The translations under genes and the position numbers were made by a program. From NCBI GenBank assembly GCA_949128115.1, contig OX421968.1, positions 53,027,423-53,091,422 of the forward strand: a stretch of 64,000 nt of DNA, given 5' to 3'. Below are positions 19,572 through 53,200 of this stretch, one piece after another. The first letter of the stretch is position 1. Each line of letters starts with the position of its first letter. The DNA is from Anaspis maculata. Lineage: Eukaryota; Arthropoda; Insecta; Coleoptera; Scraptiidae. The notes below the pieces were generated by a model. It was given only the letters and a program-made list of their open reading frames with translations. It did no database searches and had not been told where the DNA came from.

Positions 19572-20069
19572 GATTCAGCAATGCCCTCTTTCACCAATTT
19601 AACTCCATCCGTAAGTTTAATATCCAATCGTCAATCCATTCCTTCCGGTTTTTTGCAGCCTTTATCATTTTTATTTAAATTTCCGTATGGGTGAATCTTG
19701 AATATTTTACAGTCGATCCACTAAATTTTTTATCTGGAGTTTTTTATGACCTTCATTAACTGGTGTTATATTGCAAATAGTCGCGCAGCGAACGCAACCT
19801 GATGCAAACATAAAAATCACCAGCAAATTTTGATTATTCTACAGGGTGTTGCAGAAATAGCATTTATTTCAAAGGAAGCCTAATTCCTCTATGCATATTG
19901 TTATTTTTTTTTATTTGTAATTCGTATAGCTGCAATGAGAGAAGAGGAGAGATAAATAGGTACAGCTTTGGGAGATGGTAAGGTCACCTAGAAGTTTAAT
20001 AAGAGTGGTCCAGGTTGAACGTCATTAATTTGGGAAGGTGAGCATAAAAAAATAAGCAGACTTTCATTA
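19467..20069 (+). repeat. 603-bp direct repeat, left copy
   Basis: Begins with GA plus ten T and ends with CATTA. The same 603 bp recur at 25461-26063. The copies have equal length and look identical by eye. This copy ends exactly where the 3' tail of the LINE begins (20070). Confidence 0.85.
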
Positions 20070-20216
20070 CAAATACAAAATACAAATACAAAATACAAAT
20101 AATTTATTGTCTTTCAAACTTTTAACAAATTTATGACAAAAGAACAAAAGCAAGACATAAAACATAGATAATAAAATATGGAAACACAATTAAAAATATG
20201 ACCAAGTGTATCAATG

Positions 20217-23200
20217 TCATTCGTTCCTACAAAAAGCTCGGATCCTTAGTGCATTCATAACAAAATTACAAATATCTTTCACTACTTTACCCCGCACATT
20301 TTCATCTAAAAATACAAACAAATCATCGGTGTTACTAAGATTTTTGGATATGTATGCAGATCTTATGTTGGAGTAGAGAGGACATTTGAACAAAAAATGA
20401 TTCAGATCTTCATTTTGGTTGAGATTGCAAATGGAGCATATCTCATCAGCAGCTATTCTGTAACATGTGCCCTTGAACGATAGTTTTATGTATTTGTCGC
20501 TAGCAAGTCTCATTTGAGCGATCAGTCTAGTGTAGTGAATGGGCAACCTCAACCGCAGATAATCTTTGGGATTTCCGTCAAAGTTAAAAGTGACAAACCG
20601 ACCCGAAAAGCTGGAGGACCGAGCCCTCTCAATGTCTTCCCTTAGGTACTTATCTCTATAGAATGAGAGGATGTCACCCCTGCACAAGTCAAAACTTCCG
20701 CTTTCCAAATTCAACCACGACTGTCCATGACCCGCCCCAACAAAGTACTCTTTGACTTGCGAAGCCCAGTTGTACCTTGACTCACCCGATTCAATCGCGG
20801 CCAACCTATCAAAGCATAATCTCGGAAAGCGTCTGTTATTCATTCTAAGAATTCTTTCTATCCAGTTGAGCGCCATCTCCAAAATGTACAAGGACAATCT
20901 GGGTAGTCCCATTTCCAGACGCACAATATAATCAGGCGTGTTTCCAGCCAATGAGAGTAGCCTTTTGAAAAAATGAACTTGTATCCTTTCTATGAGTTCT
21001 ACATATCTTAGACCATAAACCGCTATGCAATGTGAGATGGAGCTTATAACTATTGCTTGATATAACCGGATACGCGAATCCCAGCAGTCAACCTTAGCTC
21101 GAGACATCAAAGACATCACCCCCCCAGTGGCCGTTTTAGCTTTTGTCACTGCAGCCTTGGACGCTTGTAGGAATACCGAGGAGGAGCAAAACTGGATTCC
21201 CAGGTAAGTATAGCTGTTTGCCGTTTTTATTTTCTGCTCACCATAAAGAAATGTTAAACCCCTGTCCCACCCAGAACAACCTCTACCAAAACAAAGGACG
21301 CTACACTTTTCAACATTGACTGTCAATCGATTGTTCCGACAGTAAGACTGGAGAACTCGGAGTTTGCGGTTGATATCAGCAGGCGAATCACCCAGGATGA
21401 CCAAATCATCGGCATACAGCAGCAGTACAATATCGGTATAGTTGTTGATGTTCAAACCTATAACACCCGACTCCCGGAAGAATCCTTCCATATCCGAAAT
21501 GAAGAGAGAAAACAGAAGTGGGCTCAAAGTCTCTCCCTGTAGAACGCCGGACGTTACACCAAAACTTCTTGTGTATTCACCGCCAACCCTGACACGCATA
21601 GTAGCACAATCATACAGTTTTTTCAAAATCCGGATGATCTTGGCACTCAGACCCAGACTGTACAATTTGTGCCACAAAATTGAATGGTCTAGAGAGTCGA
21701 AAGCTCTTTTAAAATCAATAAATGCAGCATAGACTCGTCTTCTCTTTAGCCTCAGCTGAATCTGAATCAGCGCATTCAAAACAAATACGCCATCCAGGCA
21801 TCCGCGTCCCTCTCTGAATCCTGACTGACATTCAGGAATGACTCCAGTCATGTCAGTCCACGCGACTAGCCTCTCTAGAAGAATCTGAGTGAAGATCTTA
21901 GTGCAGCAGTTGGTTAATGCAATACCCCTGTAATTGAGAGGATCATCTACGGGTCCCTTTTTGTGCAACATCACAATGGATATATTACTCCATTGTCTTG
22001 GCAGTACCTCGGATGACAGCACCGCGTTGAACATGCTCTGTAAATAAAGTAACCAATTCTGCGGTAAACCTTTAAAAAACTCAAAAGCAAACCCATCAGG
22101 ACCGGGCGATTTTCTTGATTTACATTTACTCAAAGCACCCGAAAGCTGTTCAAAAGTGATAGGGGAGTCCAAGATTTCACTTCCAGCATCAAAAAAGCTG
22201 ACTCCCAGAGAAACCCTCGGGGTGTAAAGGTCTCTGTAAAATTCTTCCCACTGTTCAACTGTGAGATTGACCTTCGCGTTAGTAGGTGAACTTCGAAGTC
22301 CCCTCAGGGATCTCCAGAATGTCGCTGAGTCCTTTGCATTACCAACCGCCTCCACGCACGCTTCATCATAATTACTCTTTTTTGATCTAAGTAACTTACC
22401 GTACTGCTTTTTCGAATTCAAATAAATGTGCACGTGTTGCGCTGAAAAATTATTTTGTTTACATTCTTTCAGACTATCTTTTAAAATTCTTTTTGCTTCC
22501 CTACACTCCATATCAAACCATTTCTTGCTGGCAAATCTTTTTGTCGCGAACCCAAACACTTTTTGCCTCCTGAGGCCAAGATAACCAGACACCTGCCGCA
22601 TCACGTTACACAAATTGTCGAAAGATTCCTGAACCCCACCCCTTAACGCGATTCCAGGAGAATATTGCATTGCGGATGCATAGTTCAAACTTAGATCTTC
22701 TCTCCATGTTATATATGTTTCGCTGGTTATCAGTCGCGTGTGCATTACGGGAATTTCACGGTTAAAAAAATCATGCAGTTCTAATTTCGCAGGGAAATGA
22801 TCAGATTCAATAACATCATCCATTATCCGTAAGTCACTAACCTGACTCAAGCCCAGTGCCGAGCAGAAAACATAGTCTACGGTGCTCCTCCCTCCCGGGC
22901 CACAATAGGTATACCCTCCCGGACAGTCGTGTCGAGTCCTGCCATTGAGGAGAAAAAATGAATTGTCTGTCATAAACTCAAGCAAGGTGCGACCCCTCCC
23001 GTTCACGTTCTCATCCCGAGATTTTCTTGATTCAAAAAGATCGCAGCCCTCCAGCACCTCAGGCGGAATCTCCCCTCCAGAACCCGTTCTGCAGTTGAAG
23101 TCACCACCAATCACACACATGATGTCTGGGTAATCCGAGACCACATCGTCTAGCACAGAATGAAAGAGCTCTAATACTGATTTGATCTCAAAAAGCGGTC

Positions 23201-23690
23201 TAAAATACACAGAACATATAATAACGCTAGAATCCTGGTAACCAACTCTGCACACTATCCAATGTGGAGATACATGAATGGTCTCGACCGAATATTGCTT
23301 TTCACAAAAAAACAGCAAGCCGCCACTCGCCCTGCCGCGTGAAAACTCTCGCAGTGCAGGTGAAGAAACTACCCGATAATCAGCTAAATACTCAGGAGGA
23401 GCCGACAATTCACTTGTGAGCCAAGTTTCGCTAATACACAAAATGTCAAACTCTCGATTATCGCTCACAAATGTTTCCAAATTTTTAAAGCCTTGAACAT
23501 TCCAAAAAACAATGGACACATTTTTTCTTTCAAAACCGACTCTCGCACATAAGTCCACTTTTTGCTGTTCACGTGCTGCCTTTTCATGTCCAGCAATTTC
23601 TTGCCGATCTTCATTCACTCTTTGGAAACTAACACTTTCTTCTTGCGAGTCCTGTCTCGTCTCTTTCAAAACACTAGCACCCTCACACAT
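20217..23690 (-). CDS. LINE ORF2: AP endonuclease-reverse transcriptase
   Basis: A 1157-residue intact frame. It would nick the target DNA and reverse-transcribe the element RNA there (target-primed reverse transcription). Endonuclease motifs: NVQGF near residue 64, SETWL near 87-91, GGDFNC at 195-200 and SDH near 296-298. Linker 310-520. RT motifs: KSPGPDG near 527, FIDFKRAFDSLDH near 657-669, SGVLQGETLSPLLF near 714 and YADD at 759-762. The C terminus has a cysteine-histidine cluster (CSIC...H....C) near residue 1090. No RNase H domain is apparent. The start codon lies in the same frame as the preceding ORF1b, separated from it only by a UAG and two codons. Confidence 0.92.
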   Translation of the reverse strand: MCEGASVLKETRQDSQEESVSFQRVNEDRQEIAGHEKAAREQQKVDLCARVGFERKNVSIVFWNVQGFKNLETFVSDNREFDILCISETWLTSELSAPPEYLADYRVVSSPALREFSRGRASGGLLFFCEKQYSVETIHVSPHWIVCRVGYQDSSVIICSVYFRPLFEIKSVLELFHSVLDDVVSDYPDIMCVIGGDFNCRTGSGGEIPPEVLEGCDLFESRKSRDENVNGRGRTLLEFMTDNSFFLLNGRTRHDCPGGYTYCGPGGRSTVDYVFCSALGLSQVSDLRIMDDVIESDHFPAKLELHDFFNREIPVMHTRLITSETYITWREDLSLNYASAMQYSPGIALRGGVQESFDNLCNVMRQVSGYLGLRRQKVFGFATKRFASKKWFDMECREAKRILKDSLKECKQNNFSAQHVHIYLNSKKQYGKLLRSKKSNYDEACVEAVGNAKDSATFWRSLRGLRSSPTNAKVNLTVEQWEEFYRDLYTPRVSLGVSFFDAGSEILDSPITFEQLSGALSKCKSRKSPGPDGFAFEFFKGLPQNWLLYLQSMFNAVLSSEVLPRQWSNISIVMLHKKGPVDDPLNYRGIALTNCCTKIFTQILLERLVAWTDMTGVIPECQSGFREGRGCLDGVFVLNALIQIQLRLKRRRVYAAFIDFKRAFDSLDHSILWHKLYSLGLSAKIIRILKKLYDCATMRVRVGGEYTRSFGVTSGVLQGETLSPLLFSLFISDMEGFFRESGVIGLNINNYTDIVLLLYADDLVILGDSPADINRKLRVLQSYCRNNRLTVNVEKCSVLCFGRGCSGWDRGLTFLYGEQKIKTANSYTYLGIQFCSSSVFLQASKAAVTKAKTATGGVMSLMSRAKVDCWDSRIRLYQAIVISSISHCIAVYGLRYVELIERIQVHFFKRLLSLAGNTPDYIVRLEMGLPRLSLYILEMALNWIERILRMNNRRFPRLCFDRLAAIESGESRYNWASQVKEYFVGAGHGQSWLNLESGSFDLCRGDILSFYRDKYLREDIERARSSSFSGRFVTFNFDGNPKDYLRLRLPIHYTRLIAQMRLASDKYIKLSFKGTCYRIAADEICSICNLNQNEDLNHFLFKCPLYSNIRSAYISKNLSNTDDLFVFLDENVRGKVVKDICNFVMNALRIRAFCRNE

Positions 23691-23696
23691 TCTCTG

Positions 23697-24389
23697 CTAT
23701 GCACTACCATTTTCACTGGTATTGTAGTTGACTTGTTTTCTAACTTGTTCCAACTTCCTTTTGTAGCCTGGACAGTTTATATCACGGGCAGAATGACATC
23801 TTGTCGAGATTCCCAGCTTCTTACAGTTTGGACAGTTTAGCTCTTGCGCTGTGCAGTTTTGCCCGTCGTGCCTTCCACCGCATCTGTGACAGCAGGATTC
23901 TGAGGAGCAGTTTTTTGCGACATGACCGAATCCAGAGCACTTAAAACATATCGCCAGATTAATGTACTCTCTGATATGTATTCTAGTCAAGTCAAAGTTG
24001 ATTTGTTCGCTTCTTATCAGTGCCTTGAAGATTCTTGGACAAAGTTGCAGAATGAGGTTTTCTTTTTTGACATTTCTACACTTCTTCCTAGCTATCAGCC
24101 TGATGATGGTCTCCCTGGATTCTTCTTTCTGGTCGATTTCTTCATTTTCGTTGATCAGCATGTCTCTGATTTCCTCCTCAGTATACCCTGCTTCAACTCC
24201 TGTTAGCATCAACATGGGATCAGTGTTTTTCACATCTTGATAAGAAATTTCTTTGTTCTTCTTGAGTATTTCGTGTAATTTTACTCTCTGTTGCTCGCTG
24301 TGACTTTCTAGGATGATTGTTCCGTCGTTTCTGGTTCTAATGCTCTTCAGTGCGCCTTGTAAATCTTCTTTCGTTATTTCTTTCTTCAT
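23697..24389 (-). CDS. LINE ORF1, C-terminal half (zinc-knuckle nucleic-acid binding)
   Basis: A 230-residue frame. The second half has three clustered CCHC/CCHC-like knuckles (CFKCSGFGHVAKNC, CCHRCGGRHDGQNC, then CPNC...C), typical of Gag-like ORF1 proteins of Jockey/I-type LINEs, which coat the element RNA. It begins 5 nt after the stop of the upstream half, in the -1 frame. It ends in UAG, and ORF2 starts two codons later in the same frame. Either a mutation has split ORF1, or the element uses frameshifting or reinitiation. Confidence 0.85.
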   Translation of the reverse strand: MKKEITKEDLQGALKSIRTRNDGTIILESHSEQQRVKLHEILKKNKEISYQDVKNTDPMLMLTGVEAGYTEEEIRDMLINENEEIDQKEESRETIIRLIARKKCRNVKKENLILQLCPRIFKALIRSEQINFDLTRIHIREYINLAICFKCSGFGHVAKNCSSESCCHRCGGRHDGQNCTAQELNCPNCKKLGISTRCHSARDINCPGYKRKLEQVRKQVNYNTSENGSA

Positions 24390-24394
24390 TTCTT

Positions 24395-25108
24395 TCAGTG
24401 TTTTCTTGTTTCTTCAACTTTTCCAGCCTTCAGCATTGTTTCAAATCTCTTTGCTTGTGGTGGAGTTGTCCACTCTTGATGTTCCAAGTTCTCTTCTTCA
24501 CGGTGCCTTGGTTGTAGACGTCCATAGGTTTTTTCACTGCTGTCCGTTCTAAGAGGTGTCGTTTGTTTCCTTCTTGTGTCGCTCTGAACTACCCGGGCGT
24601 AAGTGTCTCCTTTGGAGTCTGCATGTTTGTCGTTGACTCCATCTAATTGGCTCTCCAATTCTTTGATCCTGTTTTTCAGTTTGTAGTTTTCAAACTTCAA
24701 TTTGATGTTGTCTGTCTCTATATTACCACTTTTCCTTGTAATTCTGAGTAGATTTTGTGTTATGTGGTCCACAGCGAAAAATATCGTGCGAATATGGGGG
24801 TTTCCCTCTAGTGGAACAGACTTTTTAATCTCGTCCGTAGCGTAGAAAATTTCCTGAACGTAACGGCCTGTCTCATCTTCATTCTGGGAGTCTTTGTAGT
24901 CCGTTTCCTCACAGTCTGCACCGCCTTCATGATTGGGTGCATTTTGGAATTCAGTGTGGTTGTCCTGCGGCGGAGGTTCTACCTGTAGATCCCCTGGAGC
25001 CTGGTTATCATCATCATGAACTCGAGGTTTCTTTGATTTTTTCTCTCCTTCGGGCGGCGTCCTCGTCATTTTGATCGAGCGGTTGAATGGGTTTTCAGGA
25101 CTGTTCAT
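24395..25108 (-). CDS. LINE ORF1, N-terminal half
   Basis: A 237-residue frame, charged and probably partly disordered at the N terminus (KKSKKPRVHDDD). A likely coiled coil sits around residues 125-165 (FENYKLKNRIKELESQL). This matches the N-terminal multimerisation half of LINE Gag-like proteins. It stops at UGA (24395-24397). The downstream half overlaps it by about eight codons in the -1 frame, so the two could be joined by a slip, but no canonical X XXY YYZ site is visible there. Confidence 0.75.
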   Translation of the reverse strand: MNSPENPFNRSIKMTRTPPEGEKKSKKPRVHDDDNQAPGDLQVEPPPQDNHTEFQNAPNHEGGADCEETDYKDSQNEDETGRYVQEIFYATDEIKKSVPLEGNPHIRTIFFAVDHITQNLLRITRKSGNIETDNIKLKFENYKLKNRIKELESQLDGVNDKHADSKGDTYARVVQSDTRRKQTTPLRTDSSEKTYGRLQPRHREEENLEHQEWTTPPQAKRFETMLKAGKVEETRKH

Positions 25109-25460
25109 CCGCTTCTACTTAGTACCTACCCGAAAGCTCTGCAATAGAGCATTCCGGGTCACGAGGTAAGCCCCTTTCAGTGATACGCCGCTGCTGCTCA
25201 CTATCACCACATGCGACTGTCCAAAAAACAAGGCTGATAATGTTTATTTAATGTTAATTTGACAGCTGCTGCACTAAGCAAGTCCCGCGGGCCGTCTTAG
25301 CGCGCACTTTGAGCTCGGCAAACAATCTGTGTACCGCACTATATCTTCAACTGTCTATCGTACAACATTTCAGAGCTTTCCGACGCACCAAAACCGCAAC
25401 AATTCGCGAATTTTCCGGGAGTACAAAACATGCGCTTGAACGATCTCAGTGGCGTACCTA

Positions 25461-26063
25461 GATTTTTTTTTTGGATTCTCGAAATGTTTATAGGCTTAAA
25501 GCTCAAACCAAAGTACCACCAAAGTGAATGGTAAATTTCTGTCAAGGAATAAGCCCACAGCGATTGATTCAGCAATGCCCTCTTTCACCAATTTAACTCC
25601 ATCCGTAAGTTTAATATCCAATCGTCAATCCATTCCTTCCGGTTTTTTGCAGCCTTTATCATTTTTATTTAAATTTCCGTATGGGTGAATCTTGAATATT
25701 TTACAGTCGATCCACTAAATTTTTTATCTGGAGTTTTTTATGACCTTCATTAACTGGTGTTATATTGCAAATAGTCGCGCAGCGAACGCAACCTGATGCA
25801 AACATAAAAATCACCAGCAAATTTTGATTATTCTACAGGGTGTTGCAGAAATAGCATTTATTTCAAAGGAAGCCTAATTCCTCTATGCATATTGTTATTT
25901 TTTTTTATTTGTAATTCGTATAGCTGCAATGAGAGAAGAGGAGAGATAAATAGGTACAGCTTTGGGAGATGGTAAGGTCACCTAGAAGTTTAATAAGAGT
26001 GGTCCAGGTTGAACGTCATTAATTTGGGAAGGTGAGCATAAAAAAATAAGCAGACTTTCATTA
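25461..26063 (+). repeat. 603-bp direct repeat, right copy
   Basis: Same sequence as 19467-20069, abutting the 5' end of the LINE. Together they look like a target duplication of extraordinary length, or a segmental duplication associated with the insertion. Confidence 0.85.
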
Positions 26064-26444
26064 GAAATTCTTGCTCAAAAACGTTTCCCAACAAAGATTC
26101 AGGGTGTCAAAGCTTAAGACAAATTTAGCGTTTGATTCAAGGCTTCGTTTTGGAGTTTGAAAAATATCTGGAGAACGCCACTTTCATGGGGCCTCCTAAA
26201 AATTTTATATTCCAAAAACTGTTTGTTTCTCAGCCAGAATTATGGCTTCTTAACAGGTCTAGAAAGTCCGATTTGGTTTTTGCGCCCAGCTTCTGATGGC
26301 AAAACTGTATTTTTCCCTCATCCTCTCTCATCAGTAAATTAATACAGAGTAAGTTCGCGAGTCACATAAAGACAGCTTAATATCATTTTTTCAAATTTTA
26401 AATGTCTTGTTCCAAAAATCATTGAAATATTAGGCTATCGTTTT
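26064..26444. other. No gene recognised
   Basis: AT-rich DNA without motifs. Confidence 0.45.
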
Positions 26445-32045: not shown

Positions 32046-32300
32046 GCTAGTGTAAAGATAGGAAGCGCAGGTAAGAAGTGCATTGGTAATACCGACCAAA
32101 TTTTAGGAAACGTTTACACGCGAGCCGCTAGTGGCGCTGCGATCGGTCCGCCATGTTGTTACGTCACACTTCTCCGGTCCATCAGTAGCTGCCCCCACTC
32201 ATCTTTCACTAGCGGACTCACAAAAACAATGGGGTACTTGCCCATTTTTTTTTTATTGGCTTAGTCGATAGTGTGGTTTAAAATAATGTACCCGTATTTT

Positions 32301-34233
32301 TAGCGCACTTCTCCAAACGGGAAGGCGGTTTTGTCCTCGCTTTGTCCGTCCGTCCGTCCGTCCGTCCGTCACAGCATCTAGTCCTAGACGGAAAGGTTTT
32401 TGCAAAAAAAATTCACTTCAATGGGTAGCTCATGACCTTGTATCCCGAACCAAGAAAAATCTCGACGGAATAATGATAAACAATTACAATAATAACAAAT
32501 TAGTGTGACGCGGCATCGCCGTTGAATGCTGCATTTCAGAAGCCGGCCTGATATCGAAAGTTATCACATGCGATCAAGTACCCGTTCTTATCATTTTACA
32601 ATAATACATATGCGGAGTTATATTCAGAGGAGAATTTGAACTTAATTTCAATGAAAATTCCACATCGGTGCGAAGTACCAGTCAATACTAATGAATTTTT
32701 GAAAATGACTACGAAGCTACGGCTCGGCCGCAAAAGATTATTCGTTGCTTGTTGGTGCTTGATATTCTTTTCTCCGAACAAAACGGAATCCAATACAGAA
32801 AATATTCCAACTTGAATGGGTACCTCATGGCCTTGGTACGCGAACCAAGAAAAATCTTTCCGAAATAATCATAAACAATTGCAATAATAACATTTTGGTG
32901 TAAGGCGGCTTCGCCGATTAAGTGCTGGAATTCGCAGTTAGATGTTGAAAGTTACGATATGCGGGTAGCTACATGTTTTTATGAAAATACATCACTACAT
33001 GGACGGGAATATATTTAGAGAACAATTTGAACTTTCTTTTGACAAAAGCTCCACTTCGATACGACCTTCGGGTCAATTGTTATGAATTTTTGAAAACGAC
33101 CGCAAAACTACGGCTCGGCGCATATACGCGTCCCTACAAATTTAAAATCAGACGTGCCATTAACACTATTCAACATTTTGAAACAGGCATTACTAGGTAC
33201 CTGAAGGATAATGGCACTCAAACTATGAAACATGTTCGCTCAATAACAAAAAAAAAGTAGGTAGGTATCACTAAAAATCATGTGACAGACTACCATTTTT
33301 TTGGTTTTTCGATAAAAAAAGAATTGTTCCAATTCAAAAATAAACCCGATATTCGTGTTCAGGAGGTCGAAATCAGTAGGAAAACATTCTTTTATAAGTA
33401 ACAGAATGACGATTGACGCTTATGTGGCCGGTTCGACTGTATGTCTGTCTGTCCGTGTAGAAACTAGGATGATGTGCTCCTTCTCGAGAATTGAAGCAAG
33501 AGCCTTGGAACTTTTTCCGATGGATAGCTGATGGCTATCCACTAACCCAAGGGTGGCCAATGGGCACTATTTTTTGTTATCCATACATCGTTATCATTAT
33601 TATCAAAAAACAGAGATCTCCTGTGCACTTCGAAGAAGTTGAACTTCTCTTCGGGAAATAAAGCTACAGCCCTCAAAAATTGAACTTTATCCGATGGATA
33701 GCTTAGGTCCTCAAGGACCAAATAGGCAGATTGGCTTTCATAATTCCGCCGCCATCTTGGCTGCCATATTGAAATCTCTTATTAGTGGAACGATTGTGAT
33801 GAAACTTGAAATTTATCCGTGTCTAGTACAATCATTCTTATTTTCAAGCTGAATTTCATGATTCTGCCGCCATCTTGGCTGCCATATTGAAATTTCTTAT
33901 TAGTGTAACAATTTTCATGGAACTTGGAACTGACCTTTGTCTCGTATGATCATTTTTATTTTCAAGCCAAATTTCATTATTTCGCCACCATCTTCGCCGC
34001 CATATTGAAATCTTGTATCAGTGGAAGGATTTTCATGAGACTTGGAACTTACCCTTGTCTAACTAGTACGATCATTCTGATTTTCAAGCCGAATTTCATT
34101 ATTCTGCCGAAATTGTGGCCCAAATAACGGTAGAGTAGAACCCTATAGTTACTTAACATCTTGCGTTCACTAATCCTTCAAAAAGTAAGTGCGCTACTGA
34201 GCCTCATGCCCATGAGGCATATTCGCTTGTTTC
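32301..34233 (+). mobile_element. Family B repeat element (TAGCGCACTT terminus)
   Basis: Begins TAGCGCACTTCTCC and ends with the complement AAGTGCGCTA (34186-34195), followed by a tail with a perfect hairpin (CCTCATGCCCATGAGG, near 34201). The body has a GTCCGTCCGTCC tract at 32344, two diverged copies of a module of roughly 400-500 bp starting AATGGGTAGCTCATGACCTTG (about 32420 and 32816), and three 118-bp tandem units at about 33740-34120 marked by GCCATATTGAAAT. It is non-coding. Copies or fragments recur at 50215-52528. Confidence 0.7.
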
Positions 34234-34448
34234 TTCTTGCTAAACAAACAGCACTGTTCGATTGGAAGCTCAAAAAACTGTTAGAGTGACATTACAATAT
34301 TTGAAAAATACAGACATGAAAATTCCACTGACGTTTCCCTATTGTTACCAACCCTTTGAAAAATAAAAAATGAAAAAAAAATCTTTATAACCAATGGATA
34401 TATTTTCCGGAAATTTTCAGGAAATACTCTTTATTACTCTTGTTGATG

Positions 34449-35232: not shown

Positions 35233-35752
35233 TGGATCACCTAAAATTGTGTGCCAAACTATGGAACATGTTTCATCTGGTCGTATTTGTACTGTCTTGG
35301 TGTAAAGCGCCCAATGCTTCCATTTTACCGTGCTGCTGGAAAATTTTGATGAAAATGACCGTATGTCTGAGTATAAATTATTACTTATCAACCACAACTG
35401 TAAGATTTTTTACGTCTTCCCCTAATATCAAATAGTGAGTTTTCCAGGCACGTGCTGTGATGTATGACGAGTACCCCATCGGTTTAGTACCAGGGGCAAT
35501 AAGGTGCACGCCATTCAAATCCGTAATATTCCAGAGCATATCGATTTTTTTTTTCACGGCGCAGACTTCACTTTTCCCACTACCGGCTTATGTAAACGGC
35601 GAATGGCACGATACATTAACAATCTGTACTAAAGTTCCACTGCCGATCCACATTCTACACTAAGCTCTAGGTGAATGTGAATGATACTCTCTGGACCTTC
35701 TCATATAAGCGGTTCCCTTTGCTCGCAGCTCCTGCGCAGGTCTTCAAGTATA

Positions 35753-35943
35753 AATTATATCAATTGGGACCGAACAAACGTTTTTAAAAAATATTTTAAT
35801 TACTAAAGAACGTACATTTAAGCTTCTACGCGTATATAATAAGAATGAATGCTACTACAAAGCGTTTCTATTATAATAAATCTGGAAGTGCTGATTCTGC
35901 AGTGCTGACGTTGCACTAGTGCGGCAGTGGCATTGATGTAACT
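35753..35943 (-). repeat. 3' LTR
   Basis: 191 bp, identical to 43538-43728. Reads AGTTACATCAATGCC at its 5' end and ATATAATT at its 3' end on the minus strand. The stop codon of env lies inside it. Confidence 0.95.
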
Positions 35944-37715
35944 CCTCCCCTCGAAGATTCAGGTTCGGAGGCACGAGGAAGCTGAACAACTCGTGGTGGC
36001 GGCGTTGGTGATGGTAAGGGTTGCCGGGGTTGTTCTTTGATGGTTCTGTAGGACTTCAAGAATCGAAGAATTGGGTTCTTGAAGAAAATGATTACGACTA
36101 TCACGACAATCATGGCATAGATGATGTGGGTGTGATGACCATAATTGGATGAACGTTTAAGCATCGCTTGGGCCTGGAACCATTTAACTTCATTTTTCAA
36201 CTCGGAGATGTTTTCCAAGTTAACAGGGTTGATATGCGTCTTCTTTTGTGATGGGTGTTGGAATTCTTGAATTTCCATGTCCTCGAAGTCAACGAACAGG
36301 GGTCGACCTAGTTCTTCTTCCACTGATGGGCTTAGTTTTTGGTCGTTGATAAAAATGATACACTGTGGTTGCATGTGTATCAGGTAGGTACCCTGGAGAC
36401 GTTGCATTTCTCGTCTTGAAGGGCAGGTAATTTTGAGGTCGGCGTAGTTTGGTGCAATAAGAAGCCAATACTTGGTGTCCTCTATTTCTTGAATTTGGAG
36501 GTCTTGAATTTCGATGGAGTGTCGGTTGCAATCCGATAATTTTTGGTTTCGGATGATGTTGACTTCGCAGTTGTTCTTGGAGAACTCGATCAGTGCAGTT
36601 TTGCAGAAAAAGACTTCGTTGATCTTTTGGCAGTCCTCGGTTTCGTGGGCGAAACGACTCCCCGATAGTAGTAAATATCTGGTATCGGGTAAAACTAATC
36701 GAAAGGACTGAGATTCACGCCAAATGGGAATCGGGTAGAGTTTATATAGGTCGAACGGTTCATTATGATACGGGGGAATTTTCAGAATAAATACAAGTTT
36801 GTCGTTGTAAATGTATGAATCTACTTCAATTAATTTGGAAATATAGATTAGATTTTTCGGCTTTATTTCAAACGGCAATTGTGGCATTTCCACGGTTGAC
36901 TTCAATTTTGAAAGTGCATTGAAAAGATCGTTGGTGGATATGATGCTGGGATGTAAGACTTTTAATTTTGTAAATGATATAGCCAGCAATAATTGATCTA
37001 GAATTTTTGAGATAGTCTGATACATTAACTGGATTTGATTTAACGTATCAGCAAGATTATGGAGGTGTAATTGTTGAACTACTTCGTCTCTTAGGATTAC
37101 TTCAGCTTCCGTTATTCGTGTTTCTAAAATAACCTCATTCTGATAGAGATCCATTATAGATTTGTTGAATTTTTCAATAATTTCTGTGGAAAGAGAGTAC
37201 TGTTTTTTAATATTTTCTTGGAGTGAATTTTGATTTTCGGCTAGTTCCTGAATCATACTCTCGAAGTGAATTCCGTCTTCATCATCCAAATTTCCTGTAA
37301 TACTTTTAAAAACTGAACCAAGTGCATTTATCAATCCGCGTTTTTTCCTGTTCAAATTTGGGTTCTCTCTAACTGTTGTCTTGTTGGGTAGAATTTCAAA
37401 GATACTTTCCTGAATGGCGTTTTTTGTATTGTTTATAACTTTCAAATAATTTCCTATTTCCATTGAGTACGTCAAGTTGTTGAGTTGTTGTGTCTGTCGG
37501 GTCGAGGTTGAATCTTGTGTAATTATTCGTGTGAGAGAATTAAGGTTTCTATTGAGTTTTTCAAAGCGGTTGACCAAAATGGATATGTCATAATAGTAGA
37601 GTAATTTATGGGAATATTGCTGGATTTTTGCAGTACCTAGGTGTACCGGGAGGAGTCCTGGATTATTTTTAAGGTTCCGTATCTCTATCGGACTCGTGGT
37701 CGTTATCAATACCAT
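35916..37715 (-). CDS. env: Errantivirus Env (baculovirus F-like fusion protein)
   Basis: A 599-residue frame. Family role: membrane glycoprotein of errantiviruses, related to baculovirus fusion protein F. Seen here: a furin-type site RKKR at residues 123-126, followed by a hydrophobic glycine-rich fusion-peptide region; a predicted membrane anchor near 529-546; and a cytoplasmic tail of about 54 residues, rich in proline and serine. The frame overlaps the end of pol by 47 nt. The last residues are encoded by the polypurine tract and the 3' LTR. The ATG at 37715 is probably not the true start: the frame is open upstream to a splice acceptor at 37732-37733, and the leader exon would supply the start. 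No stop or frameshift is visible. Confidence 0.9.
35944..35953 (-). promoter_or_regulatory. Polypurine tract
   Basis: CGAGGGGAGG on the minus strand, immediately before the AGTTAC start of the 3' LTR. It would prime plus-strand synthesis and also encodes part of the Env C terminus. Confidence 0.85.
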
Positions 37716-40700
37716 GAGCAGTAGGGCGAACCTGCAACAATTTATTGATCTTTAATGGTCGCTTAATGTTTCTCATGTGATATTTGCGTTGTTTTGTGGC
37801 AATAACATGTTTGTTCCTATCAACTGCAACGGGTTTTATGGGTGGCCTGAATTTATTTTGGGTTTTGGTCACCCGTCTAGTTTCCTTAGGGTAAATAGCT
37901 TGTTCAGCGTCAAGTTCGATTTGTTCTTTGTCTTTGTTAAGTCTTGATAAGGTTTTAGTTTTATTTTCTTGTAGCCTGTCATTGAGTTCACGGTATAACA
38001 GTTTGGTCTTTTCTTTGTGATTCTGAACATAATTACTAGTCAGTAATTTTTGGCAGTTTATGTCAAAAGGGTCGTCTAATTCTAGGTGGCCAGATACAAT
38101 TTCGATAGGTTTTTTGCCAGTTGAGGTGTGTATAGAATGGTTATAGGCAAGAACTGCGAAAAGAGTTTTAGTCTTCAAATCTTCAGCTGGGAATTGTTCG
38201 TTGAGCAGCCGAATGTGTTCTAACAGTGTACTGTGTAACCTTTCTACCATGCCGTTGGATTGTGGATTTTCAGGAGTGATGAAATGAATTTTTATTTTAT
38301 GTAATTCAAGTAGTTCTTTCAAATTTGTGTTTTTGAACTCTGTGCCGTTATCACAAATTATCATCTTTGGAATTCCAAGGTGTGAAAAGAATTTCAGAAG
38401 GCTCTGAATTATATCGATTGAGTTGTGACTTTGTATCTTATAGATTTGAGCGTATTTCGAGAATGCATCTATGATCGTGAGAAATATTCCCTTATCAATC
38501 GTTATCGTATCGATATGTATCGTCTCGAAAGGTTTAGTTGCTGTGGGTGTTAGGTTGATTCCCAGTTTCAAGGGGTTGCGTTCGTATTTTGTACGTTGGC
38601 AGATATCGCAGGTATTTATGTATGTCTGAATTGAACTTTTCATGTTAGGCCAATAATAAAGACTTTTAATTTTTGCCTCTGTTTCATTTATACCGCGATG
38701 GTTGGTCTTGCTCTCGTGATATTTTCGTAGTACTTCAGGTATTTGGTTTTCCTCTACATCTATCAATTTTCGTTTTGTACAAATGAATTTATAGTGGGGC
38801 CACTTGAATGTTTTCCTCACTGTCTCGCAAAATGAATAGTATGCTTCTGGGGGATCAAAGATCATGTGATAAGTTATTTCGGGTACGATGTATTCCCTTA
38901 TAAAGTCAATGATTTCGGTGTCGAAATTATTTTTATCGATTTGGACAAGTAATCTCTGTCTGTTTGGGAACGGCTTTATAATTTTGGTTCGAGCTGGAGA
39001 GTGATTGACCAGTTCGATTTCAATTTGATTTTGACCTTTATTCAATATATCATCAGATATCGGAATTTCAACAATAGGGTTTTCTTGGTCATTAGAATGC
39101 TGAGTACCGTCATCATTTTCAGGCTCTGGTAATGGGTCGTCAGGTTCTGGTAATGGGTCATCAGGTTCTGGTAATGGGTCATCAGGTTCTGGTAATGGGT
39201 CATCAGGTTCTGGTAATGTGTCATCAGGTTCAGGTACCTGCTGGATGTCGTTTTCGTGGTCGCGATCTATAACAACTGGTTCGGGGGTTTGATCATCGGT
39301 TTCGTCTATAGCTATTGTTGGTACGATTTCGGGCTCGGTTTCGTTAAGAATGTAAATACGTATATTGACGGGAGTGTTCCGAAAGGTGGTTTCGATCATT
39401 TGGGATATTCTTTCCCATTTTAGGCCATCAAGCCCACAAGAAATTTTTGGCATAGCAAGATCTTTAACATTATGTCGTAAACAGAGATCTTTTAAATAGG
39501 TGAGTGATTCTTGCAGATTTTCGTAGGTAGGCTTGTCATGGTAACTAGACTTCGTGATCATATAATAAACGTATCTAGAAGGGAGTTTCAAGCAGGCGAC
39601 TTCTCCAACTTCTTTACGTTGTTTTGTTAGAGTCGATATATGATTAAATCTTGTTCGAAACTGAACTGCGATCCCTTTGTTCATTATAAGGTCTTGAGAA
39701 ATACAGTGAGCAAGGGAGAAATGTTCGGGGGCGTCAAAAAGGTTTCCATTCAAAATTTTGATTTGGTTTGATTTTTCTTTTTGTGACGTCGAAGGCATAC
39801 CGATCTCTGATTGTTCGTCTTTGTTGGCGATTAGAGAGGCTTTTTCTAATTCGTCATTGAATTCTCTGATATAATCATGAATATTCTGAGGTATATTGGT
39901 TTCATTGATATTGATTTCTATGCGAGATAGAGCGTCTGCATTGGAATTCAATTTTCCTTTTTTAAAGATGATTTTATAATCATATTCCTCGAGCTTGAGG
40001 CGCCACCTGACCAGTTTGGAGTTAGGCTCCTTGAGGGAGAATAACCATATCAAGGGTTTGTGATCAGTGATAATATTAAACTTACGCCCAAAGAGATAGG
40101 GCCTAAAGTACTTCACGGCGTACACAATTGCCAGAAGTTCCTTTTCGATCGTGGAGTAGTTTTGTTCCGTATCATTGAGAGTTCGTGATGCAAAGGCCAA
40201 GGGCAGGTCATTACCAATGGGCCCTTGAGACAAAACGGCTCCAATGGCTACGTTGCTCGCATCGGTGGTCAGGTTAAACGTTTTAGAAAAATCAGGATAC
40301 TGAAGGATGGGCTCGTTCATCAATACCTTTTTGCATGTGTCGAAACAAGACAAGAATTCTTCATTATGGGTAATTGTGGCATCTTTTTTCAAACATTTAG
40401 TCAATGGCTTGGTGAGTTTCGAGAAGTCTTTGATGAACTTCCTATAGTAGCCCAAGAGCCCTAGAAATCCTTTTAGCTGCTTTGGCGTTTTTGGGATGGG
40501 AAAATTTTGAATAGCCCTAACCTTTTCTGGATTGGGCTTAATGCCATTGGGTGTGACAACATGACCCAAGTAATTTACTTCTTTTCTTAGGAACTCGGAC
40601 TTGTCCAGTTGAATTTTGAAATTCGCTTGTTCTAATCGTTGAAAAACTTGTTTTAGGTTAACCAAATGGTCCTGAAGTGACACACTAAAGATGATTATGT

Positions 40701-41985
40701 CGTCTAGATAGACTAGACAAAGCTCATTCTGTAACCCGCGTAATATATTCTCTACAACGCGCTGGAAGGTCGCCGGAGCGTTCTTTAACCCAAAGGGCAT
40801 GCGTAGGTACTCATAGTGCCCGTTTTCGACCGTAAATGCGGTCTTTTGAATGTCTTCCGGGGCCATTTCAATTTGGTGGAAACCGGAAGCCAGGTCTAAC
40901 AGGGTGAAGTACTGACAACGTCCCAGTTTGTCTAAAATATCTGAGATGTTTGGCAATGGATACCTGTCGTCGATAGTTTTTTCATTTAACTTCCTGTAGT
41001 CGACAACAATACGCCATTTTTGTCTACCACTGGCGTCAGGTTTCTTTGCCACTATCCAGATCGGTGAACTCCATGGCGAACTGCTGGGTCTTATGATTTT
41101 TTGGTCTAACATCTTTTGAATTTGTGTTTTTACTTCATTTTTATGGACGAAAGGGTATCTGTAAGTTTTTGAATATACTGGCATTTCGTCTGATGCTTTA
41201 ATTTGATGTTTGATCGCATTTGTGAAAGTTAAAGGGGTATCTTCATCATAAAAAATATGAGAAAATTCTTTTACAAGGTTTTCAATGGCAATTTTTTCCT
41301 CAGCATTCATGTGTTCAGTTCGAATTTTGGGTTGATTGCATTGTTTGTGTTCAAAGTTATGGAAATTAGAGTATTCCATTGAGTTTTTCTGAAAATCTTC
41401 AGGAGCAATCGGCTCGGATTCGAGAGGTTCTGCATAAAGCGGTTCAGAAAAGTCGAGGTTGACGGGTTGTTCCGTTTTATTCATAACCGTTACGAAGGCT
41501 TCATGGTTTTTTGCAGTAGTCAAGCACTCTGGGATCTCACAGCCATGTGATGATACATGGGAAATGATGATGTCACCATTGGCGATGGTGGTTCTTACCT
41601 TGACAATTTGTTCGCAACGAGGGATTATTGAACAGGTATTAATTTGTTTTTGGGGAATATTTTGAAAATGAATTTTCAGGTTTCCAAACGGAGTCACCAG
41701 TGTTTGACTATTGAAATCCAGAGTCGCATTTAAAAACTGCAAGTTGTCCAAGCCAATTAATCCTTTGAAGATATTATGGAATTTGAATAATCGAAATTTC
41801 ATAAATTCACCTGGGCGATTAAATATGTAGGGAACTTCCATCCATCCGCTATATTTATGCGCCGAGGTTGAAAACATGTTTGATACAATAAATGGATCGA
41901 ATTGAATGGTGTCTGGGAAAATCTGCTCTGCAATATCCGGATCAACAAAGGATTGACTAGCACCTGTGTCTATCAAAAACTTCAA
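37669..41985 (-). CDS. pol: Errantivirus Pol with inserted macro domain
   Basis: 1438 residues from the first possible start; the natural product continues upstream from the gag frameshift. Domain order: aspartic protease (DTGA at 6-9); RT (about 255-480, YLDD at 426-429); RNase H (about 565-690, acidic residues D575, E616, D641, D684); a linker; a macro domain (741-882); an acidic LPEPDDP repeat (about 918-956); then integrase with an HHCC finger (H1090, H1096, C1126, C1129) and a D,D35E core (D1159, D1212, E1248). All catalytic residues are kept. The usual errantivirus pol has no domain between RNase H and integrase, so the insertion adds roughly 350 residues including flanking linkers. Confidence 0.95.
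37732..37733 (-). promoter_or_regulatory. Putative env splice acceptor
   Basis: TTGTTGCAG on the minus strand ends at 37732. The exon from 37731 is in the env frame and adds a hydrophobic Ala/Leu-rich stretch before the first ATG, as expected for a signal peptide. Confidence 0.65.
39121..39235 (-). repeat. 21-bp tandem repeat in pol
   Basis: About five units of 21 bp, each encoding LPEPDDP or close, lie between the macro domain and integrase. Units are almost identical at DNA level, so the array is recent and probably length-variable. It likely forms a flexible acidic linker. Confidence 0.85.
39340..39765 (-). other. Macro domain (TARG1/OARD1-like ADP-ribosyl hydrolase) inside pol
   Basis: Residues 741-882 of Pol. 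Sequence landmarks match the TARG1/OARD1 (C6orf130) branch of the macro fold in order: GNLFDAP at the start, [47 protein letters not shown]. The Lys of YYMITK (residue 812) and the Asp of CGLD (residue 853) fall at the two positions known to be catalytic in human TARG1 (Lys84, Asp125). Family activity: removal of ADP-ribose from acidic residues and nucleic-acid ends, and deacylation of O-acetyl-ADP-ribose. The role here is unknown. It is in frame and undamaged. Confidence 0.92.
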
Positions 41986-42083
41986 GTCTTTAAAATTTGG
42001 GAAGATAACATACGGTAATTGGTTTGTATGCTCTTCGCTATGATTAAGGGTTACTTGTTCAATTCCGTCGCTGAGGCCGGCAT

Positions 42084-42090
42084 TAAAAAA
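42084..42090 (-). promoter_or_regulatory. -1 ribosomal frameshift site for gag-pol
   Basis: TTTTTTA positioned exactly as U UUU UUA in the gag frame, 12 codons before the gag stop. Pol is in the -1 frame, and that frame is open from this heptamer into the protease. The following GC-rich stretch (ATGCCGGCCTCAGCGACGG) could form the stimulatory structure. Confidence 0.85.
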
Positions 42091-43314
42091 TTTTCGTCCT
42101 CCTCTACATATTGATGATTAGGTCCGTTAGTTGGTCCGTTAGTTTCTGGGATATCTTGAGTTTCGTTATGGTGGAACTGAGAGTTGTAATTATTATTAGG
42201 TCTGTAATTTTGGGTAAAATTCGGTGGTCTCTGTTGGGTTTGCCTGGTACTTATACTCATGGGTACCGGCGGCGTAGATGGTCTGTAATTCGGGTTCGGT
42301 TTGAAAACATTCTGGTCCCTGTTTTGATAATTATTTTGGAAATTATTCGGTCTAAAATTTTGCGGTTTAGGGTTTCTGAAAGATTGTGCATTATTTGTGA
42401 AGAATTTGGGTCTCTGTATTTGCCGCGGCTGTACATTGATTGGCTGAGACGGGAAGTTTTGCTTAAATGTATTTGAGTTTGAACTTTGTGGAGTTTGACC
42501 ACCTGAATTTGAAGATTTCTGGTAATATTTCACATTGTTTTCTTCATTAATGTATTGAAGGGCGGTTTGCAAATCTGGAGGCCTCATGGCCCGAATTCCG
42601 CTTCCAAGGGGTTCTCTCAGACCGGCGAGGAACGTCTTCAGCGCTAACTTATTATACAATTCCTTTTTAATAACTTGACCTTCCGCAGTTGGTTCATGCA
42701 TCGTGACATATGAGCAAAGCAAGTTCAACAATCCCACCACTTTATCATAAAAATGCAGGCTGGTTTCGCTGGATTGTTAACTGAGAACTAAATCCCTTAT
42801 TAAGCATATTTCGTCCCGTAAGTCGCTGAAGTTCCGCGATAAAGTATCGCGAAGGTCGTCCCATGTTTCCACGGATGATATATTTATGGCTATCTTTGCA
42901 TTTCCCGTCAACTTATTCATCAACGATTTTAAAATGAATAAATTTTGAAAACATTGCGGGTTGTTTTGGTCAATAAAGGTATCTATTATGGATGCCGCTG
43001 CAGTCAAGAAATTATTCAATTCGTTGGGGTTGCCATCATAAAGGGGTACGCAGTTCAGGTATTCAGGTTTAAACTGCATCGCAACCCCAACTACTTGCTG
43101 CGGAGGCTGTTGCCCGACTCCTTGAGGAGGATTTTGCGCTGGATTCATTATTATTGAAGTATTGTTACTATTATTAGTTGGAATCAAGTGATTATTGGTT
43201 AAACTTGTATTTATATTGAAAATCTCGGGATCAGGGGGGTCGATATTTAGTTGTTGGATTCTTTCGATTAATCCTTCGATTTCAGACATAAACTGTATAT
43301 CAGAAAAATCGCTC

Positions 43315-43316
43315 AC
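43315..43316 (-). promoter_or_regulatory. Putative env splice donor
   Basis: TAGG followed by GTGAGC matches the donor consensus. It follows a short leader ORF starting at ATG 43343-43345 and precedes the gag ATG. 29 nt of the leader ORF plus the exon at 37731 keep the env frame. Confidence 0.65.
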
Positions 43317-43528
43317 CCTAGAAATCCGGAGAACTGGAGTTGCATCTGTGTGTAGTCGGTAGCTCTGGGATGTCTCAAAAGGGCCGGTGGTTATTCGATG
43401 TTTGGAATGCCACTAGAGTCCTTTTTTAACTGCGATTCGCGATGAATCGAGAGAGCACAGGTTTACTGGATTAATTGTTGAAACAAACAATTTTCGCGAT
43501 GAAAAATGTCCAGTAATTCTACCTTGAT

Positions 43529-43538
43529 AACTGCGCCA
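43529..43538 (-). promoter_or_regulatory. Primer-binding site, tRNA-Ser-like
   Basis: TGGCGCAGTT directly after the 5' LTR. The first nine bases complement the 3' end of a typical insect tRNA-Ser; the match weakens after that. 17.6- and 297-type errantiviruses are known to use tRNA-Ser. Confidence 0.65.
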
Positions 43539-43728
43539 ATTATATCAATTGGGACCGAACAAACGTTTTTAAAAAATATTTTAATTACTAAAGAACGTAC
43601 ATTTAAGCTTCTACGCGTATATAATAAGAATGAATGCTACTACAAAGCGTTTCTATTATAATAAATCTGGAAGTGCTGATTCTGCAGTGCTGACGTTGCA
43701 CTAGTGCGGCAGTGGCATTGATGTAACT
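43538..43728 (-). repeat. 5' LTR
   Basis: 191 bp, identical to the 3' LTR. Contains a TATATA-like word (TTATTATATACGCG) upstream of the likely transcription start. Confidence 0.95.
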
Positions 43729-43732
43729 TATA

Positions 43733-50200: not shown

Positions 50201-53200
50201 TTTTTAGCGCACTTCTCCAAACGGGAAGGCGCTTTTGTCCTCGCTTTGTCCGTCCGTCCGTCTGTCCGTCACAGCATCTAGTCCTAGACGAAAAGGTTTT
50301 TGCGAAAAAAATTTACTCCAATGGGTAGCTCATGACCTTGTATCCCGGAGCAAGAAAAATCTCGACAAAATAATGATAAACAATTACAATAATAACAAAT
50401 TAGTGTGACGCGGCATCGCCGTTGAATGCTGGATTTCAGAAGCCGGCCTGATCTCGAAAGTTATCACATGCGATCAAGTACCCGTTCTCATCATTTTACA
50501 ATAATACATATGCGGAGTTATATTTAGAGGAGAATTTGAACCTAATTTTAATGAAAATTCCACATCGGTGCGAGGTACCAGTCAATAGTTATAATTTTTT
50601 TAAAATGACTCCGAAGATACGGCTCGGCCGCAAAAGATTATTCGTTGCTCGCTGGTGCTTGATATCCTTTTCTCCGAACAAAACGGAATCCAATACAGAA
50701 AATATTTCAACTTGATAACATGGATAACAAAAATAGTGTCCATTGGCCACCCTTGGGGGACATCAGCTATCCATCGGAAAAAGTTCTAAGGCTCTTGCTT
50801 CAATTCTCGAGAAGGAGTACATCATCCTAGTTTCTACACGGACAGACAGACAGACGAACCGGCCACATAAGCGTCATTCTGTTACTTATAAAAGAATGTT
50901 TTCCTACTGATTTCGACCTCCTGAACACGAATATCGGGTTTATTTTTGAATTGGAACAATGGTAGTCTGTCACATGATTTTTAGTGATACCTACCTACTT
51001 TTTTTTTGTTATTGAGCAAACATGTTTCATAGTTTGAGTGCCATTATCCTTCAGGTACCTAGTAATGCCTATTTCAAAATGTTAAATAGTGTTAATGGCA
51101 CTATTTATCCTGTCTGATTTTAAATTTGTAGGGACGCGTATAGGCGCCGAGCCGTAGTTTTGCGGTCGTTTTCAAAAATTCATAACAATTGACCCCAAGG
51201 TCGTATCGAGGTGAAGTTTTTGTCAAAAGAAAGTTCAAATTGTTCTCTAAATATATTCCCGTACATGTAGAGATGTATTTTCATAAAAACATGTAGCTAC
51301 CCGCATATCGTAACTTTCAACATCTAACTGCGAATTCCAACACTTAATCGGCGAAGCCGCCTTACACCAAAATGTTATTATTGTAATTGTTTATGATTAT
51401 TTCGGAAAGATTTTTCTTGGTTCGCATACCAAGGTCATGAGCTACCCATTCAAGTTGAAATATTTTCTGTATTGGAGTCCGTTTTGTTCGGAAAAAAGGT
51501 TATCAAGCACCAGCAAGCAACTAATTTCTTATTATTGTAATTGTTTATCATTATTCCGTCGAGATTTTTCTTGGTTCGGGATACAAGGTCATAAGCTACC
51601 CATTGGAGTAAAATTTTTTCGCAAAAACCTTTTCGTCTAGGACTAGATGCTGTGACGGACGGACGGACGGACGGACAAAGCGAGGACAAAACCGCCTTCC
51701 CGTTTGGAGAAGTGCGCTAATCAGACGTGCTATTAACACTATTTAACATTTTGAAATAGGCATTACTAGGTACCTGAAGGATAATGGCACTCAAACTATG
51801 GAACATGTTCGCTCAATAACAAAAAAAGTAGGTAGGTATCACTAAAAGTCATGAGACAGACGACCATTTTTTCGATTTTTCGATAAAAAAAGAATTGTTC
51901 CGATTAAAAAATAAACCTGATATTCGTGTTCAGGAGGTCGAAATCAGTTGGAAAACATTCTTAAGTAACAGAACGACACGCTTATGTGGCAGGTTCGTCT
52001 GTCTGTCGGTCTGTCTGTCTGTCCGTGTAGAAACTAGGATGCTGTACTCCTTCTCGAGAATTGAAGCAAGAGCCTTGGAACTTTTTCCGATGGATAGCTG
52101 ATGTCCCCAAGGGTGGCCAATGGGCACTATTTTTGTTATCCATACATCGTTATCATTATTATCAAAAAACAATGATCTCCTGTGCACTTCGAAGAAATTG
52201 AACTTCTCTTCGGGAAATAAAGCTACAGCCCTTAAAAATTGAACTTTATCCGATGGATATTAGGTTAGGTCCTTAAGGACCAAATAGGCAGATTGGCTAT
52301 GAGTGGAAGGATTTTCATGAAACTTGAAAGTTACCCTTGTCTAGTACGATCATTCTGATTTTCAAGCCGAATTTCATTATTCTGCCGAAATTTTGGCCGC
52401 CATATTGAAATTGTTTGCTCAAATAACTGTAGAGTAGAACCCTAGTTACTTAACATCTTGCGTTCACTAATCCTTCAGAAAGAAAGTGCGCTACTGAGCC
52501 TCATGCCCATGAGACATATTTGCTTGTTTTTTGTTGGTTACCTAAATCTACGCGTATTGTTTTTTTTTCAAATTTGCATGTAAAACAGTTGACTCAACTG
52601 TACTGGTTTATACTGATCTGATCAGTATATCATCTGGTATCGTGGTATCAACTGATCTATACTGGGAAAACGTATAGGGAATCACGCGGATCCTGGTTGA
52701 TACAGTATGCATATTACTTACAATAAATAGTGTTTAATACAAACCCTAGTAATGAGCCGGAAGTATACATATGCTGATTGCGATTGATGGACTCGGTGGC
52801 TGCCATTTTCTTTTCTTCGCGCCTGAAAAAAACAAAAACAAAAAATCACTTACAGGACTAGGTGGAATCAACAGTTGTTTTTTGTTTTGTTTTGGCATAC
52901 TTTTTTTGCATATGCTGGATGCTGAAGTCCTCGGTCGTGAGGTAGGTCAGGACTGCGTAACAAAAGAAGAAGATATCTTCTCCCTTGGCTTGCCTGTCGG
53001 TCCAGTGATGCCCGAACAGCAGCCAATCATAAACGACGGTGAGGTACACCATGTCGTGGGAGTCCAACGAAGTGTGGATCAGTCCATCGGCCCACAAGCT
53101 CAGACGGAGAATTGCGATGAACAGGGGGGTGCGATCCCAACCGCTGATGCAGTGGACGAGTATGCCGTTCGTCCCTTTCTGTGAAATGCGACACCACATG

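What the first reader, a model, noticed from the sequence alone, without database searches (positions are those of the whole stretch)
39340..39765. ADP-ribosyl hydrolase (macro) domain built into errantivirus Pol between RNase H and integrase
Seen: an intact frame with the ordered TARG1/OARD1 landmarks and both known catalytic positions (Lys812, Asp853 of Pol). Known: standard errantivirus pol goes straight from RNase H to integrase, while non-primate lentiviruses carry a captured dUTPase in this slot. Alphaviruses, coronaviruses and others use macro domains to counter host ADP-ribosylation. Inference: a host-derived eraser of ADP-ribose was captured and kept by this element, perhaps to remove PARP marks from virion proteins, integrase complexes or DNA/RNA ends. 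I do not know whether it has been reported before.
Basis: partly seen in the sequence, partly recalled or inferred. Interest (0 to 1): 0.95.

Follow-up and report, generated by a model that had tools for sequence, protein, structure and literature searches.

The report
ADP-ribose eraser inside retroelement Pol
An insect-type endogenous retrovirus carries, inside its replication polyprotein, a complete copy of an enzyme domain that cells use to remove ADP-ribose tags, with its catalytic residues kept, which suggests that this kind of genetic parasite may fight or repair host ADP-ribosylation.

The parts
39340..39765 (-). TARG1-class macro domain, Pol residues 741-882 (nominal); catalytic Lys codon 39550-39552, Asp codon 39427-39429
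37669..41985 (-). pol ORF (listed from a TTG; open from 42117): protease DTG, RT YLDD, RNase H and integrase catalytic letters present by eye in translated pieces
40558..41046 (-). reverse transcriptase (RVT_1)
39982..40293 (-). RNase H (RT_RNaseH)
39119..39236 (-). 21-bp tandem repeat, 5.6 copies, read as an acidic proline-rich linker (LPEPDDP units) between macro and integrase
   Evidence: low pLDDT
38809..39027 (-). small unannotated alpha/beta segment before the integrase zinc domain, modelled without relatives; pLDDT blocks 53, 49, 59 in its first 30 residues, then 73-79 over 40 residues
38584..38754 (-). integrase H2C2 zinc-binding domain
38263..38538 (-). integrase core (rve)
35916..37715 (-). 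env ORF, 599 aa, Baculo_F fusion protein
42051..43412 (-). gag region (no Pfam family on either half), interrupted by an in-frame stop at 42777-42779 in this copy; called gag from its place and from recall
42084..42090 (-). T TTT TTA heptamer in the gag/pol overlap; pol lies in the -1 frame of gag
43538..43728 (-). 5' LTR, 191 nt
35753..35943 (-). 3' LTR, 191 nt, 100% identical to the 5' LTR; purine tract just upstream at 35944-35952
43729..43732 (.). target site duplication TATA, 5' side
35749..35752 (.). target site duplication TATA, 3' side
43522..43538 (-). putative primer-binding site TGGCGCAGTT... (assignment from recall)

Best explanation
The element's Pol carries an extra, independently folded ADP-ribosyl hydrolase of the TARG1 type. 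In a coding-competent relative it would be made as part of Gag-Pol by -1 frameshifting and packaged next to reverse transcriptase and integrase. There it most likely removes mono-ADP-ribose, placed by host PARPs, from the Pol/integrase complex or from the single-stranded parts and ends of the nascent cDNA, so that reverse transcription and integration are not blocked. Shown: the domain, its class, its catalytic residues, its in-frame place, and linkers that model as flexible. Inferred: frameshifting, packaging, catalysis, substrate and benefit.
For: Sequence and fold match to TARG1; Lys and Asp dyad kept, the dyad being described for TARG1 in PMC9411070 (passages); 36 of 39 conserved positions kept; domain a high-confidence island between low-confidence linkers; slippery heptamer and pol frame. 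TARG1 reverses thymidine-linked ADP-ribosylation, the mark that DarT puts on single-stranded DNA (PMC8501950, passages), and removes PARP1-made DNA-ADP-ribose at single-stranded telomere DNA (PMC11102865, passages); it also acts on phosphate esters at nucleic acid ends and on protein Asp/Glu (PMC7050489, passages). In flies without PARP-1, 5 of 8 mobile elements among the significantly changed genes go up, gypsy-clade springer by 2505.47 (PMC7712786, passages), so PARP-1 may oppose such elements. dUTPase in vertebrate retroviruses can lie between RT and IN (PMC5408684, passages).
Against: No activity, expression or packaging data. One copy only; siblings could not be looked for, the genome search having did not complete (17 tries). 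The gag of this copy has an in-frame stop. In PMC7712786 3 of 8 elements go down, ten further rises have FDR above 15% or p above 0.05, and the authors cannot exclude an indirect effect. Three near-invariant positions differ, one Gly to Ser four residues before the catalytic Asp. ADP-ribosylation of retroelement cDNA was not shown in any passage that I saw.
Confidence: 0.5

Rival explanations
1. Same enzyme, different target: it acts on host proteins (chromatin, stress or immune factors) after entry or during particle assembly, as macro domains of RNA viruses are said to do, rather than on the element's own complex or cDNA.
For: Macrodomains of RNA viruses are reported to counter innate responses (PMC7232374, start of abstract in a listing); PARP-1 loss raises several gypsy-superfamily elements (PMC7712786, passages); macro domains in other arthropod viruses.
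Against: Gag-Pol made by frameshifting is scarce and stays in particles, which suits a local role better (inference from general knowledge).
Confidence: 0.25
2. A reader rather than an eraser: the domain tethers integrase to ADP-ribosylated chromatin or DNA breaks and so steers integration, in the way chromodomains are thought to act in chromoviruses.
For: Chromodomain precedent at the C terminus of Pol (PMC12440569, passage); flexible linker to integrase.
Against: Both catalytic residues are kept, which a pure reader does not need; the domain is N-terminal of integrase.
Confidence: 0.12
3. A recent passenger: a host or viral TARG1 coding sequence captured by chance in this copy or a small subfamily, with no benefit.
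For: No second copy in the window and none found elsewhere; conservation could have been kept in the donor before capture.
Against: Open through both junctions in frame; base composition near that of pol (A 0.338 against mean 0.359, sd 0.034; GC3 0.352 against 0.399, sd 0.065, in 130 overlapping pol windows that include the domain; third-position T, 0.35, is the highest of the eight segments); the long branch fits long residence in a fast-evolving element, though a fast-evolving donor would do as well.
Confidence: 0.11
4. Assembly chimera.
For: Raw reads were not available.
Against: Whole domain in frame on both sides, pol-like composition, an identical 191-nt LTR pair and a matching target duplication.
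Confidence: 0.02

Closest known systems
TARG1 / OARD1 / C6orf130 (ALC1-like macrodomain hydrolase)
   Different: TARG1 is a free cellular protein; here the domain is built into a retroelement polyprotein and sits on a long branch
DarG macrodomain (bacterial antitoxin)
   Different: Much weaker sequence match (35.7 against 147 bits); DarG keeps only the Lys of the dyad (PMC7050489, passage)
Macro domains of arthropod viruses, above all Kadipiro virus VP8
   Same: Same fold; Kadipiro VP8 45% identity, TM 0.96
   Different: Not reverse-transcribing; the other named arthropod-virus rows (thrips flavi-like and virga-like viruses, an entomopoxvirus, iridescent viruses) have only about 21-34% identity; sequences could not be fetched for a tree
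dUTPase domains in retroviral and rotifer LTR-element Pol
   Same: A cellular type of enzyme inserted in Pol (PMC5408684, passages)
   Different: Unrelated fold and reaction (general knowledge); in the rotifer elements it lies between protease and RT
Errantivirus / Ty3-gypsy elements; Ty3 as solved yardstick
   Same: RT-RNase H-integrase order, LTRs, Baculo_F env, TATA target duplication, pol in the -1 frame of gag
   Different: 343 residues from the end of the RNase H match to the start of the integrase match against 38 in Ty3, 142 of them the macro domain

Membership tests
TARG1-type macrodomain hydrolase | macro fold closest to TARG1 | tested here: met
TARG1-type macrodomain hydrolase | catalytic Lys (human Lys84) and Asp (human Asp125) | tested here: met
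   83 of 83 rows of A2; roles from PMC9411070, (PMC7050489 writes Glu125 for the second residue)
TARG1-type macrodomain hydrolase | de-ADP-ribosylating activity | not testable with these tools
   needs an assay
TARG1-type macrodomain hydrolase | descent from an insect host TARG1 | tested here: inconclusive
   AU p 0.218 (with two flies), 0.105 (with eight arthropods)
Errantivirus-like Ty3/gypsy element | LTR pair with short target duplication | tested here: met
Errantivirus-like Ty3/gypsy element | Pol order RT, RNase H, integrase, with Ty3 as best match among solved structures | tested here: met
Errantivirus-like Ty3/gypsy element | baculovirus-F-like env | tested here: met
   PF12259, E 2.2e-34
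Errantivirus-like Ty3/gypsy element | RT phylogeny inside Errantivirus | not tested
   no errantivirus sequences could be fetched
Complete coding-competent provirus | all ORFs open | tested here: not met
   in-frame stop in gag; pol and env open
Domain kept by selection in the element | sibling copies with the domain under constraint | tested here: inconclusive
   The genome search unanswered 17 times; one search found 0 of 47 candidates among long proteins

The most novel reading that the evidence does not exclude
The element uses a Pol-borne DNA de-ADP-ribosylase to clean its single-stranded cDNA, which would mean that the animal host marks retroelement cDNA with ADP-ribose as a defence, parallel to bacterial DarT and to dUTPase against uracil in retroviral cDNA.
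Probability: 0.2. Interest if true: 0.96.

Novelty: new variant of a known kind. Interest (0 to 1): 0.82.

Why it matters
Macro domains are known tools of RNA viruses against host ADP-ribosylation. None of the papers that I saw describes one in the Pol of a reverse-transcribing element. If the domain is active and shared by siblings, it shows that ADP-ribosylation acts against retroelements strongly enough for a parasite to keep an eraser in its replication machine, and it gives a direct handle on whether proteins or cDNA are the target.

Tried and rejected
Chance match: rejected. Plus-strand reading: stops.

Sibling elements: one search searched residues 241-382 of a 938-residue Pol piece against proteins of matching length, 47 candidates, none at E 0.001 or better (the tool reaches only relatives that share exact 5-residue words). 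Scans of viral contigs with P0001, an RT piece and an integrase piece gave 3, 4 and 7 pattern stretches and no relative. The two-row profile A1 gave 72 viral loci out of 127 stretches and one bacterial locus out of 49; none of these 73 loci matches the RT, RNase H or integrase pieces by tblastn at 1e-3. P0001 alone found one protein; the profile then found 460, of which 120 were listed.

Donor: trees of 90 of the 120 listed hits (the 30 left out by hand were mostly vertebrate rows, some partial) and of 36 of 120. In the quick tree the domain joined two unnamed proteins of source 'lgn' (SH-aLRT 87 and 92, neither starred); in the careful tree, which held both, it lay in an unresolved group (25/66).

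A first motif count by regular expression missed Lys in 5 and Asp in 2 of 120 rows; all seven rows are in A2, where the residues align. RNA families at the gathering score and tRNA genes: none in the window, so they do not name the host; that the host is an insect is an inference. In the model the RNase H part is poor because no relatives covered it; only the macro island, the linkers and, weakly, the next segment are used.

Papers: ten searches. Six paired macro-domain terms with retroelement terms; shown were 20 of 30 papers (13), 20 of 100 (16), 12 of 598 (21), 12 of 633 (57), 12 of 416 (58) and 12 of 529 (78), and no title or abstract start shown reports a macro domain in an LTR element. 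Term searches in the main text of PMC9503650, PMC13172572, PMC5408684, PMC12992720 and PMC12440569 found none. The most relevant survey, Chary and Hayashi 2025, eLife 108449 (known from a reference list), is not held, so a report there is not excluded.

Full report
What is there. On the minus strand between 35753 and 43728 lies one LTR element. Its two 191-nt LTRs are identical and are flanked by TATA on both sides. A sequence TGGCGCAGTT follows the 5' LTR and a purine tract precedes the 3' LTR (their naming as primer site and polypurine tract is from recall). ORFs: a gag region, pol 37669-41985 and env 35916-37715. Env is Baculo_F, E 2.2e-34; the two gag-region ORFs hit no Pfam family. Pol lies in the -1 frame of gag, and the overlap holds T TTT TTA in the gag frame at 42090-42084 (that such heptamers serve frameshifting is established knowledge). 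Protease DTG, RT YLDD, RNase H and integrase catalytic letters are present by eye in the translated pieces. Gag has an in-frame stop at 42777-42779, so this copy as assembled does not encode a full Gag; I do not know whether that is a mutation or an error.

The domain. Residues 741-882 of the nominal Pol, at 39340-39765, are a macro domain by Pfam (E 8e-8, 32.7 bits, cut-off 22) and a TARG1 by sequence (human OARD1 E 2.9e-42; best DarG 7.2e-8; MACROD1 0.0053). NCBIfam's best family is DarG at 52.9 bits, far below that model's 250-bit cut-off. The profile search found 460 proteins at E 1e-5 or better among 685 candidates; the 120 listed are animal OARD1s and many unnamed proteins, with BLASTP identities to the element's domain of up to 53%. 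In the alignment of 82 of these 120 with the domain (A2), Lys72 and Asp113, the counterparts of human Lys84 and Asp125, are invariant in 83 of 83 rows. 36 of 39 columns at least 90% conserved in the others are kept; the changes are L69M, G109S and V120I. Unconstrained change simulated from the domain's own DNA to 51% identity keeps 18.0 of those 36 positions on average, at most 26 in 1000 runs, and leaves no stop in 23 of 1000. So the path that separates this domain from its relatives was constrained. How much of it lay in the donor and how much in the element is unknown.

How unusual is the slot? Against Ty3 Gag-Pol (PDB 7q5b) the RNase H match ends at Ty3 residue 1029 and the integrase match begins at 1067; the same points in this Pol are nominal residues 708 and 1051. 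So a distance of 38 in Ty3 corresponds to 343 here. I could not fetch other errantiviruses; from memory they have a linker here too, without a macro domain.

Origin. The domain has an end branch of 1.75 or 2.03 against medians of 0.44 and 0.55, and no supported sister in the careful tree. Union with the two fly TARG1s, or with the eight arthropod rows, is not rejected (AU p 0.218 and 0.105). Identity in A2 is 43% to each of the two fly rows and at most 49% to any row (A2 left out most vertebrate rows); in the BLASTP figures it is 45-46% to the flies and 51-53% to the best mammals. On so long a branch this tells little. The viral structure library ranks Kadipiro virus VP8 first (45% identity, TM 0.96), then a nameless row and a thrips flavi-like virus (34% each); thrips virga-like viruses, an entomopoxvirus and iridescent viruses stand lower. 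Errantiviruses took their env likely from a baculovirus (PMC12440569, passage), so capture of a TARG1 from another insect virus is as open as capture from the host. The base composition of the domain is near that of pol, which argues weakly against a very recent capture.

How it may work. TARG1 breaks ester links of ADP-ribose to Asp/Glu, to O-acetyl and to phosphate at nucleic acid ends (PMC7050489, passages). It reverses thymidine-linked ADP-ribosylation, the mark that DarT puts on single-stranded DNA, and in bacterial rescue needs Lys84 (PMC8501950, passages). At telomeres PARP1 places, and TARG1 removes, ADP-ribose on single-stranded DNA and overhangs (PMC11102865, passages). Reverse transcription makes just such single-stranded DNA and ends, in a particle in which this domain would sit beside RT and integrase (inference). 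In Drosophila without PARP-1, 5 of 8 mobile elements among the significantly changed genes rise, springer of the gypsy clade by 2505.47, and 3 fall; ten more rises, nine of them gypsy-superfamily LTR elements, miss the paper's thresholds; its authors cannot exclude an indirect effect (PMC7712786, passages). I therefore commit to a local eraser that keeps the Pol complex or its cDNA free of ADP-ribose, at 0.5, with action on host proteins (0.25), a reader role (0.12), a passenger (0.11) and a chimera (0.02) as rivals. Frameshifting, packaging, processing and activity are inferred.

Novelty. Six paper searches that paired macro-domain terms with retroelement terms (only part of each result was listed) and term searches in five papers gave no report of a macro domain in the Pol of an LTR element. 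The survey of NAD-ADP-ribose systems in viruses has no mention of retrotransposons, Errantivirus or Metaviridae (PMC9503650, term search). The main survey of metazoan errantiviruses was not held. The parts are known; the combination appears new. I file it as a new variant of a known kind.

Limits. One copy, no sibling, no species name, no reads, no assay. The genome search that would give siblings was requested 17 times and never answered.

Noticed in passing
window 19467-26068: A LINE (endonuclease and RT ORF 20217-23696, ORF 23697-24413 with a weak CCHC match, further ORF to 25114) lies between two 608-bp direct repeats of 99.8% identity (19467-20074 and 25461-26068). From memory this recalls the non-terminal repeats of Drosophila TART elements.
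   Followed up: partly
window 42777-42779: In-frame stop in the gag region of an element whose pol and env are open and whose LTRs are identical.
   Followed up: partly
window 38809-39027: A small alpha/beta segment of Pol before the integrase zinc domain, modelled without relatives (pLDDT 73-79 over 40 residues, lower before); only a chance-level NCBIfam match, E 0.3.
   Followed up: no
window 1725-5217 and 60919-62103: Large inverted repeat pair (1656 bp, 94%) and a long self-complementary stretch (1195 bp, 88%).
   Followed up: no
window 32297-34239 and 50201-52536: A 118-bp tandem array (33736-34089) and a block of segments 84-94% alike, in mixed orientation, repeated some 18 kb away.
   Followed up: no
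BFVD rows: Kadipiro virus VP8 models with a TARG1-like macro domain (45% identity to the element's); none of the ten papers listed of 363 in a search with Kadipiro and macro-domain terms named Kadipiro virus.
   Followed up: partly
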